From NCBI GenBank assembly GCA_963922205.1, contig CAWUHX010000011.1, positions 1,353,749 through 1,417,748 of the forward strand: a stretch of 64,000 bases of DNA, given 5' to 3'. The position numbers and the translations under genes are program-made. This document shows positions 46,825 to 49,160 of this stretch, in pieces. Every line of letters begins with the position of its first letter. The stretch's first letter is position 1. Source of the stretch: Romanomermis culicivorax (taxonomy: Eukaryota; Nematoda; Enoplea; Mermithida; Mermithidae). Below the pieces are notes generated by a model. The model was not told the DNA's origin and ran no database searches. It saw nothing but the letters and a program-made list of their open reading frames with translations.

Positions 46825-48534
46825 ATGTTGGTCGTTGTTTTGTATCTTTTTCTGTATAATAATCCCCACATCCTGTAGTGCCCAATTCCAGATCTGTGGA
46901 ACTTCATTGAGCGGTCACTCGGTCAACATACCAAAACTTGTATCATGTATGCCACCTTCCACAGTAGACAAACCAGTACAGACATTGGGGAAAATCTATA
47001 TCCCCTCCACTAAACCTCACATAACAGATGCATACAAATGCAGTGTTCGCAAACAGAAAATTTGTACCAATACTGGATTTTTTGGCTCAAAAGGTATTGT
47101 TTTGGACCAAACCGAAATGCAAAATCTAACCCCGCACGTTTGTAAGGCAATCGCTATAGACAAAGAACACAACAGTCAAAAATTATACAAAACTCAACCA
47201 GGATTTTGGTCAACAAACAACTCCCTAAGCGTAGAATACACATGGTGTTGTACAGACCACTGTACATCGGTCACTAACGTCATCATAGAAATAGGACAAA
47301 TAGCATCTTGGAATGGAAAATCAATGACAGGTACATTAAGTGACCTGGGGTCATGCAAACCAACATCAGGCCATTGTGTAATGGCCGACGGGTCCATTAT
47401 CTGGAATGAAACAGCATTCAAAAACTTATGCCCTTTCGGATACAAAAATACACATCCCATAAAACTGACACAAACCCACATGATAATAGAAGAGCTACAA
47501 GGTGCATTCTCCATCAAAAATACACTCTTTTCGAACCCCAACTGCCCAGAAATCCAAGACAGTGTCCTAACCGAACAGGTCATTGTTGTACAATTAGATA
47601 ACAGCACCCCACATCGTAACGCCTTTTTTACCCCAAAAACCAACGAAACCCATACTACACTTTACGATTTTGATGATTTTGAACCGATTAACGCAGAACT
47701 AAACTATCTAGCAGACAAAATACAGGAATTCGAAATCCAAAGTTTCAAAAACGTCTGGAGTGAATTATGCAGACAAGCACAGGGTCATCTTGACTTAGCA
47801 TGGCAAATTCTACACCTTGATGCAGCCCTTGGGGCCCGTGCATTCCTACAGCAAGCCGACATAATAGCAGAATTCACAGGAGATGCCCTCACAGTCTGGC
47901 CATGTAAGCAGGTAAATGCATCCAAAGTCTTTTACAACCATAAAATCATCAAAACATGCTACAAACTTTTACCTATTCTGGTAGGAACTGAGCTCATGTT
48001 TTCGAACCCAGGAGGAAACTATTTGACCCCTTTCTCACAAACGGTTGACTGCCCCCCACATGCATGTAGCCCTTTACAAACAGAACAATACATGGGTCAG
48101 CGAAACAGGATCCCCATATGTCACTGATCTACCTTTAGAAATCATCTGGAACCAAATTTTCTCCCTTTTCCATTTTAACACACCTGCAATTTTTCATGAT
48201 CAAATCGCAACTATTTCAACCAACCTACTCTTCCTGAAACAATACATTTACAAAACCCACACACTCCAACATGTCATTAAAAAACTCGTCAATTACACCC
48301 CCAAATGTCTCTTAATTCAGATACAGTTTACAATATGATCTCAGGCAGTGGCCAAGCAATCGGAAATACCCTCTCTGGCCCTGGTCAAGGCATAGAACAT
48401 GTAATAACCGATACTACCCAAAGCCTCACAGACGGATTAAATAATTTACTCAAAGGACCCCTGCAAATCATTATCAATCTAGCCCTTATTACTGTAGTCA
48501 TTTCAGGCCTCTTTTACTCTTTTCTCATTCTTCG
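46825..48534 (+). CDS. Env-like viral-type glycoprotein, N-terminal to protease
   Basis: Predicted membrane glycoprotein. An ATG at 46825 opens a hydrophobic signal peptide whose T-rich tract (46840-46855) holds a one-base frame change; from there the frame is open to 48127 (IIPTSCSAQFQICGTSLSG). The ectodomain has about two dozen cysteines, five sequons (NNS, WNET, DNST, TNET, VNAS), a CVMADGSIIWNE segment, and an amphipathic helical region around LADKIQEFEIQSF. The C-terminal ectodomain shifts frame near 48060-48125 and again near 48305, then gives a Gly-rich linker and a transmembrane helix (IIINLALITVVISGLFYSFL, 48467-48526) with basic LRKY after it. Resemblance to class III glycoproteins of negative-strand RNA viruses is only an impression from the DG-x-x-W segment. 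Origin is therefore open. Confidence 0.75.
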
Positions 48535-49160
48535 GAAATATTTCGCTTCCCCAAAGCATCATAGCACAAATGAACATGCATACGAAATACCATCACACAA
48601 CAGACGTTTACATGAGACCATTCTCCCATCATTGGGCCATGCTCTCTTGGAATTAGCTGATTGTCCTGGGGCACAAACACAGCAGAAATACGTCCTTGTC
48701 GATATCAATGCCCCAAGAACTCCTGCAATCGAACTCATTAATCAAATCCACCAATCTGGATCAAATAAGCCATCCCAGAATGTGCCTGAGAAACATACCC
48801 CTCACATTCCGATCACACTTAACCGCAAGCTGATTACAAAAGGCATGATTGACACTGGTGCAGTATACTCACTCATTGATTCGCGAATCGCTCAAATCTT
48901 CCAGCTAGACATGAAACCCCCACTAGTCCAAGCCAAAGCAGCAAATAATCTTCGGATTCACTGTGTAGAAACCACTTTTGTCACAGTAACAGCCCAAACT
49001 ATCCAGGAAACAATAATGGTCCATGTCCAAAAAGACTGCACAGCAGACGTCCTTCTAGACAAAAACTTTCTCAGTCGATTTTCGGAAAACACTATCAACA
49101 ATCAGAAGTCCCAGGTCAAATTTGGCGATAACATACTACCTTGTGATGGCCTGGAATAAT
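48535..49160 (+). CDS. Retroelement aspartic protease, in frame with the env-like anchor
   Basis: Cuts the polyprotein. The frame starting at 48305 passes through the membrane anchor, about 100 linker residues, and then a retropepsin: catalytic GMIDTGAVYSLID (Asp codon 48851-48853), flap-like LRIHCVETTFVTVTA, and a C-terminal DVLLDKNFL, where Asp replaces the Gly common in this LLG motif. It ends at a TAA created by a 40-bp tandem duplication (49121-49160 and 49161-49200). There is no independent Met after the anchor, so protease would be made fused to the glycoprotein tail or by another route. This arrangement is not known to me in Gypsy elements. Confidence 0.8.

What the first reader, a model, noticed from the sequence alone, without database searches (positions are those of the whole stretch)
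46825..49160. Glycoprotein gene lies between gag and protease in an LTR retrotransposon
In env-bearing LTR elements known to me, env follows integrase. Here a signal-peptide-bearing, cysteine-rich, glycosylated frame of about 570 residues with a membrane anchor follows the gag zinc knuckles and precedes protease, and no env is found between integrase and the 3' LTR. LTRs, target duplication, PBS and PPT frame it as a single element, so it is not a chance insertion of another element.
Basis: partly seen in the sequence, partly recalled or inferred. Interest (0 to 1): 0.88.

Follow-up and report, generated by a model that had tools for sequence, protein, structure and literature searches.

The report
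Retrotransposon with envelope gene mid-polyprotein
An invertebrate genome carries several families of LTR retrotransposons whose virus-type envelope glycoprotein sits between the capsid part and the enzymes, in many copies inside one long protein frame, instead of at the end as in other envelope-bearing elements known to us, which opens a new setting for studying how such elements gain and use envelopes.

Summary
The window holds a decayed LTR element (44081-53261, TSD TTGG) with a signal peptide, a roughly 570-residue Cys-rich glycoprotein and a membrane anchor between gag zinc knuckles and protease, and no env after integrase. In 18 of 20 fetched copies, gag, glycoprotein, PR, RT-RH and IN form ONE frame of about 2,409 codons; 16 of 20 have 99.4-100% identical LTRs. 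The glycoprotein is under purifying selection (ectodomain pN/pS 0.035, 18 copies) and belongs to the chuvirus/Monjiviricetes fusogen family (PF24664, 6.7e-19; profile match to herpesvirus gB, 1.8e-5). Four divergent families in the same genome have glycoprotein, protease and RT in the same order behind gag (in one, gag rests on a lone zinc knuckle motif); of 73 RT copies of one subgroup, 61 have env upstream, 0 downstream. Hydrophobic segments flank the glycoprotein, so Gag and Pol could stay cytosolic while Env is lumenal. Most likely mechanism: a Gag-Env-Pol polyprotein with internal signal peptide; a spliced Env-Pol mRNA is the main rival. Expression and activity were not observed. Ten searches of open papers listed no gag-env-pol element.

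The parts
44077..44080 (.). target site duplication TTGG (5')
44081..44968 (+). 5' LTR (888 bp, TGTAAC...ATTACA)
44974..44986 (+). primer binding site TGGTGACC... (limits are my reading)
   Evidence: same place in the fetched copies
45212..46421 (+). gag: capsid part and CCHC zinc knuckles (frame interrupted in this copy)
   Evidence: natural copy L009: zf-CCHC 8.9e-10, Retrotrans_gag 1.9e-5
46422..46834 (+). Pro-rich spacer between gag and signal peptide
46835..46882 (+). internal signal peptide, cleavage expected after ...SCSA
   Evidence: hydropathy; cleavage site is my reading
46883..48466 (+). Cys-rich chuvirus/gB-like glycoprotein ectodomain; frame shifted near its 3' part in this copy
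48467..48523 (+). transmembrane anchor followed by basic residues
48809..49078 (+). aspartic protease (DTGA)
   Evidence: PF13975 7.1e-5, below cut-off; natural copy L029 2.4e-9, above it
49724..50911 (+). reverse transcriptase and RNase H
50915..52188 (+). integrase: H2C2 zinc domain, rve core, GPY motif region (frame interrupted here)
52360..52372 (+). polypurine tract GGAAGGAGGGAAA
52373..53261 (+). 3' LTR (889 bp)
53262..53265 (.). target site duplication TTGG (3')

Best explanation
This is a decayed copy of a high-copy, recently mobile Ty3/Gypsy-type LTR element whose lineage captured a chuvirus-type (class III-like) membrane fusion glycoprotein and kept it between gag and protease, in frame with both. 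Shown by sequence: order, single frame, conservation across families, purifying selection, and hydrophobic segments on both sides of the glycoprotein. Inferred: the genomic RNA is translated as one Gag-Env-Pol precursor. Gag is made in the cytosol, the internal signal peptide sends the glycoprotein into the ER lumen, signal peptidase cuts Gag from Env, the anchor stops transfer, and PR-RT-IN follow in the cytosol, where PR frees Pol from the Env tail and Gag from the signal anchor. This resembles the capsid-glycoprotein polyproteins of flaviviruses and alphaviruses (recalled). Env would let particles bud and fuse with other cells (inferred from homology).
For: 18 of 20 fetched copies have one frame from the gag ATG (1755-1761 nt before the env match) to a stop that starts 4,246 nt after it; gag, zinc knuckle, env, PR, RT-RH and IN pieces map to that frame in 4 of 4 copies mapped. 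58 of 98 scored copies (the window's own included) have frames of at least 2,409 aa. pN/pS over 18 copies: env ectodomain 0.035, stem 0.061, gag 0.089, PR 0.073, RT-RH 0.022, IN 0.048. L069 is open for 1,926 codons from zinc knuckles through env to the N-part of IN; L073 has env-TM-PR in one frame. Protease lies between env and RT in L069 and L072 (over the Pfam cut-off) and in L070 and L071 (1.6e-4 and 0.0021, below it). Hydrophobic segments stand before and after env in the window family and L069-L072. Nearest Met before the signal peptide is 46 aa away in L069 and 78 in L070, and none in the 94 aa back to a stop in L072. PF24664 6.7e-19; gB 1.8e-5. The stop lies about 30 nt before the 3' LTR, so there is no room for an env after IN.
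Against: No RNA or protein data. In the window's family an AUG stands at the first codon of the signal peptide in 20 of 20 fetched copies, and in L071 a Met lies 13 aa before the core of it. A donor-like leader site (17 of 20) and an acceptor-like site about 135 nt before env (18 of 20, fixed offsets) are conserved, though the donor was not the best-scoring one, so a spliced Env-Pol mRNA is possible. Insect elements splice env from varied upstream exons (PMC12992720, passages), so a missing AUG does not exclude splicing. The L071 copy has an in-frame stop between gag and env, L070 one in gag, and L072 changes frame. Structure could not be predicted. A single frame would give Gag and Pol 1:1, known from some other single-ORF elements (recalled).
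Confidence: 0.58

Rival explanations
1. Retrovirus-like splicing: Gag comes from full-length RNA, and a spliced mRNA starting at the env AUG makes an Env-PR-RT-RH-IN fusion, so Pol enters particles as the cytosolic tail of Env.
For: AUG at the signal peptide start in 20 of 20 copies of the window's family and a Met 13 aa before it in L071; conserved donor-like (17 of 20) and acceptor-like (18 of 20) sites, and no ATG between the 5' LTR and gag ATG in 18 of 20; low synonymous diversity over the env start; spliced env is typical of insect elements (PMC12992720, passages).
Against: No nearby AUG in L069, L070 or L072. ATG triplets in the 540-nt spacer of one copy are not depleted (3 seen, 4.0 expected). 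Splice sites are consensus matches with recalled weights. Equally low synonymous diversity occurs in parts of gag.
Confidence: 0.32
2. The glycoprotein is made but serves the element inside the cell or the host (for example membrane targeting of assembly or superinfection block), not infection of other cells.
For: High copy number in one genome fits intracellular spread as well; pattern scans of IMG/VR gave no relative.
Against: Constraint on the ectodomain is stronger than on TM and tail (0.035 against 0.148 and 0.123), and homology to fusogens points to a fusion role.
Confidence: 0.08
3. Nested insertion or assembly join of an unrelated glycoprotein gene into a gag-pol element.
For: The order is unlike that of the published elements seen here.
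Against: Same order and frame in 18 of 20 separate insertions, 16 of 20 with exact TSDs, and env before RT in further families; 61 of 73 RT copies of another subgroup have env 1.5-2.2 kb upstream.
Confidence: 0.01

Closest known systems
Anakin (BEL/Pao elements of mosquitoes with chuvirus glycoprotein; PMC7642597, abstract in part and passages)
   Same: LTR retroelement with a chuvirus-type glycoprotein
   Different: BEL/Pao pol, while ours matches Gypsy-type features; the passages seen do not state where its glycoprotein lies (Figure 1C not held), so its order was not compared
Atlas virus of hookworm (BEL/Pao; PMC9094657, passages)
   Same: single uninterrupted polyprotein that includes an envelope protein
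   Different: order Gag-Pol-Env, Env at the C-terminus, phlebovirus-like class II fusogen
Insect errantiviruses / iERVs (PMC12992720, passages)
   Same: Gypsy-type element with a captured env
   Different: env is a third ORF from a spliced mRNA and F-type (baculovirus-like); its place after pol is recalled
Lokiretroviruses (PMC9040795, passages)
   Same: Env related to Mononegavirales glycoproteins
   Different: dual RNase H; vertebrate hosts (recalled); env position not stated in the passages seen
Jingchuvirales glycoprotein EVEs (PMC10084718, passages)
   Same: same glycoprotein family, often near Gypsy fragments
   Different: authors report no clear evidence of capture by Gypsy or Copia elements; this would be such a case

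Membership tests
Ty3/Gypsy (Metaviridae) | PR-RT-RH-IN order | tested here: met
   the same order is also found in BEL/Pao (PMC12440569, parts 1-2 of 5)
Ty3/Gypsy (Metaviridae) | TG...CA LTRs and 4-6 bp TSD | tested here: met
   exact 4-bp TSD in 16 of 20 copies
Ty3/Gypsy (Metaviridae) | GPF/Y motif in IN | tested here: met
   NGPY near the IN C-terminus of the one copy read; PMC12440569 calls the motif a hallmark of Gypsy, Retroviridae, Odin and Ginger1
Ty3/Gypsy (Metaviridae) | RT groups with a named Gypsy clade | tested here: inconclusive
   no named reference clades in the tree; env families group with metagenome proteins P0001 and P0004 (99/76)
Retroviridae / errantivirus-like order | env after pol | tested here: not met
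   stop about 30 nt before the 3' LTR; 0 of 73 RT copies with env downstream within 5 kb
Anakin / BEL-Pao | BEL/Pao RT | tested here: inconclusive
   no BEL/Pao model among the Pfam matches of the pol pieces and a GPY motif is present, but no tree with BEL/Pao references was built
Atlas-type single-ORF env element | Gag, Pol and Env in one frame | tested here: met
   18 of 20 copies
Atlas-type single-ORF env element | Env last, phlebovirus-like | tested here: not met
Monjiviricetes/chuvirus fusion glycoprotein PF24664 | score over Pfam cut-off | tested here: met
   67.7 bits against 27 for L003; 42.9 for the window piece
Class III fusogen | gB/VSV-G type fold | tested here: inconclusive
   profile of five families matches HCMV gB at 1.8e-5; single sequences gave no PDB match; structure prediction switched off

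The most novel reading that the evidence does not exclude
A separate lineage of env-bearing retroelements in which the fusogen is built into the Gag-Pol precursor, so that one translation event delivers capsid, lumenal glycoprotein and cytosolic enzymes in equal numbers through two membrane crossings: a flavivirus-like assembly plan arrived at by a reverse-transcribing element.
Probability: 0.5. Interest if true: 0.93.

Novelty: new variant of a known kind. Interest (0 to 1): 0.86.

Why it matters
Env-bearing LTR elements are thought to become infectious by adding env downstream of pol, often read from a spliced RNA. A diversified lineage that keeps a chuvirus-type fusogen between gag and protease in one frame shows a second way to carry an envelope, predicts a membrane-spanning Gag-Env-Pol precursor, could do without a spliced env mRNA, and offers many near-identical copies on which expression and processing can be tested.

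Tried and rejected
Nested insertion: rejected. 2A-type separation of Gag and Env: no NPGP in the pieces of 4 copies tested. Troyka membership: dropped after reading parts 1-2 of 5 of PMC12440569 (no env, CG...CG termini, 3-bp TSD). Splice-site scoring used recalled consensus weights and decides nothing. ATG depletion of the spacer: none in the one copy tested. Env relatives outside this genome: single-sequence protein search none at 1e-3; profile search gave 2 proteins, P0121 and P0122, the latter labelled a Gammaproteobacteria MAG on a 1,383-bp contig; pattern scans of IMG/VR (39, 67, 88) and GTDB contigs (87) and tblastn of phage records (68) gave none. RT relatives: 146 proteins. Copy counts are lower bounds: 98 scored of 4,440 candidates, 68 of 2,320.

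Rows dropped: one search used 74 of the 108 rows (left out: 33 rows of the 56-57% family, not tested there, and the second piece of a row already counted); 73 of the 74 have 65% identity or more. It used 90 of the 104 env rows (left out: the last 14). Searches left out L011 and L028 (18 of 20 used); one search also L010.

Against my reading: 12 of 73 RT copies had no env hit within 5 kb upstream; 10 of these 12 have stops inside RT, the other two (C131, C5:2995699) do not, and C131 has an env hit 5.15 kb upstream. L071 has an in-frame stop between gag and env, a Met close to its signal peptide, and no Pfam gag match (one zinc knuckle motif only). In L069 no DT/SG motif was found although the protease profile matches. 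L072 shows a further hydrophobic stretch in another frame that I did not explain.

Full report
What was checked. The window lies at G000:C11:1353749-1417748 of an unnamed 359-Mb genome in 595 contigs. A COX1-like stretch in it (L074) has 11 in-frame TGA; of the four mitochondrial codes tried (2, 4, 5, 9) the invertebrate code 5 fits best by my reading (TGA Trp, AGR Ser, AAA Lys), which points to an invertebrate animal. It could be a nuclear copy, and one locus is thin evidence.

The element. LTRs 44081-44968 and 52373-53261 are identical at 836 of 888 aligned positions (94.1%, K2P 0.061) and flanked by TTGG, with a PBS and a polypurine tract. Gag with CCHC knuckles, signal peptide, Cys-rich glycoprotein, anchor, protease, RT-RNase H and integrase follow in this order. 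The window copy is decayed: gag, env and pol frames are each broken.

Other copies. Searching the genome with the glycoprotein piece gave 98 scored places of 4,440 candidates, the window's own among them, the others 88-92% identical; 58 of 98 lie in open frames of at least 2,409 aa. I fetched 20 copies in pieces. In 18 of 20 one frame runs from the gag ATG, 1755-1761 nt before the env match, through env to a stop 4,246 nt after it, about 30 nt before the 3' LTR; L011 is broken in gag and L028 throughout. In 4 of 4 copies mapped, gag, zinc knuckle, env, PR, RT-RH and IN pieces fall in that frame. 16 of 20 have LTR pairs aligned over at least 850 bp at 99.4-100% identity; L009 has 97.8%, L028 94.6%, and L011 and L018 gave no complete pair. 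16 of 20 have exact 4-bp TSDs; L011, L018, L019 and L028 do not or cannot be scored. The family has therefore moved recently in this genome (inference).

The glycoprotein. The natural region of one copy (L003) scores 67.7 bits (E 6.7e-19) against PF24664, Monjiviricetes fusion glycoprotein, and weakly against herpesvirus gB (0.0061, below cut-off). Single sequences gave no PDB match; a profile of five families finds HCMV gB at E 1.8e-5 and 2.5e-5 and other gB entries down to 0.0059. The env piece of the copy read has 20 Cys, 9 N-glycosylation motifs, a signal peptide and one anchor. Among 18 copies pN/pS is 0.035 in the ectodomain (first 407 residues without signal peptide), 0.061 in the stem, 0.148 in the TM and 0.123 in the tail; gag 0.089, spacer 0.247, PR 0.073, RT-RH 0.022, IN 0.048. 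Synonymous differences near 0.1 with almost identical LTR pairs suggest several source lineages that diverged under selection on the protein before these insertions (inference).

Other families. PF24664 finds 68 scored places in this genome, all 68 over the cut-off. Four divergent families were read in part. L069, L070 and L072 show gag or zinc knuckle matches, then env, then RT-RH (zinc knuckles of L072 also 6.1e-12); L071 shows env and RT-RH behind a frame with one zinc knuckle motif and no Pfam gag match. Protease profiles match between env and RT in all four, over the cut-off in L069 (1.7e-6) and L072 (3.3e-8), below it in L070 (1.6e-4) and L071 (0.0021). A fifth, L073, read over 2 kb only, shows env - TM - a DTG protease motif (PF13975 0.069, weak) in the RT frame of a family with 3,018-aa open frames (8 rows of that exact length); its gag was not read. 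Pairwise identities among the window family and L069-L072 are 51-75% in RT-RH and 34-59% in env, and broadly fall together, which fits one capture followed by joint descent. In an RT tree the five families group with two metagenome proteins of unknown context (99/76), and four of them with P0001 at 100/100. Of 73 RT copies of the L071 group, 61 have env on the same strand 1.5-2.2 kb upstream (50 of 51 at 77% identity or more) and 0 of 73 have it downstream within 5 kb.

Mechanism. Hydropathy finds strong segments on both sides of the glycoprotein in the window family, L069, L070, L071 and, across a frame break, L072; in L073 only the anchor was in reach. Gag and pol pieces of the one copy tested have none. 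A precursor read straight through would cross the membrane twice and leave PR-RT-IN in the cytosol. The nearest Met before the signal peptide is 46 aa away in L069 and 78 in L070, and there is none in the 94 aa back to a stop in L072; in L071 one lies 13 aa away. In the window's family an AUG stands at the signal peptide in 20 of 20 copies, with conserved splice-like sites (17 and 18 of 20), so an Env-Pol mRNA is a live rival. Expression was not observed in any form.

Comparison with what is known. Atlas virus has a single Gag-Pol-Env polyprotein, env last (PMC9094657, passages). Anakin is BEL/Pao with a chuvirus glycoprotein (PMC7642597, passages); its order is not stated in the passages seen. 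A later survey reports no clear evidence of capture by Gypsy elements (PMC10084718, passages). Insect elements make env from a spliced RNA (PMC12992720, passages). Cer1, bdelloid and other papers were seen in passages only and show no such order (PMC10309623, PMC5408684, PMC13269885, PMC5408687). Ten searches of open PMC papers listed no gag-env-pol element; I saw listings and passages, so an unlisted, preprint or subscription paper may describe one.

Verdict. That the order is real and shared by the families read is firm (about 0.97). The polyprotein reading is more likely than splicing but unproven (0.58 against 0.32).

Noticed in passing
window 1-11400: ORFs like those of a Maverick/Polinton-type element: weak matches, below cut-off, to Pox_A32 packaging ATPase (E 0.0034) and rve integrase (E 0.002); the assignment is my reading.
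   Followed up: partly
window 54981-59105: Pieces of what may be another, older LTR retroelement; no convincing Pfam match in the two ORFs scanned.
   Followed up: partly
window 49121-49198: 40-bp direct duplication in the PR-RT linker of the window copy.
   Followed up: no
window 13529-13976: Long (TTTTC)n array, about 89 units.
   Followed up: no
G000:C180, hits at 404, 8769, 17134: Three env hits 8,365 bp apart, each with one TGA: tandem array of elements, perhaps by LTR recombination.
   Followed up: no
G000:C371:149121: Env hit reported in an open frame of 24,354 aa, perhaps because of a run of N.
   Followed up: no
L049-L067, first 350 nt of env: Synonymous diversity is low (0.00-0.05) over the env start and the last 100 nt of the spacer, but also in parts of gag: an RNA signal or regional shared ancestry.
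   Followed up: partly
P0122: A relative of this glycoprotein is filed as a Gammaproteobacteria MAG protein; perhaps host DNA in a metagenome bin.
   Followed up: no
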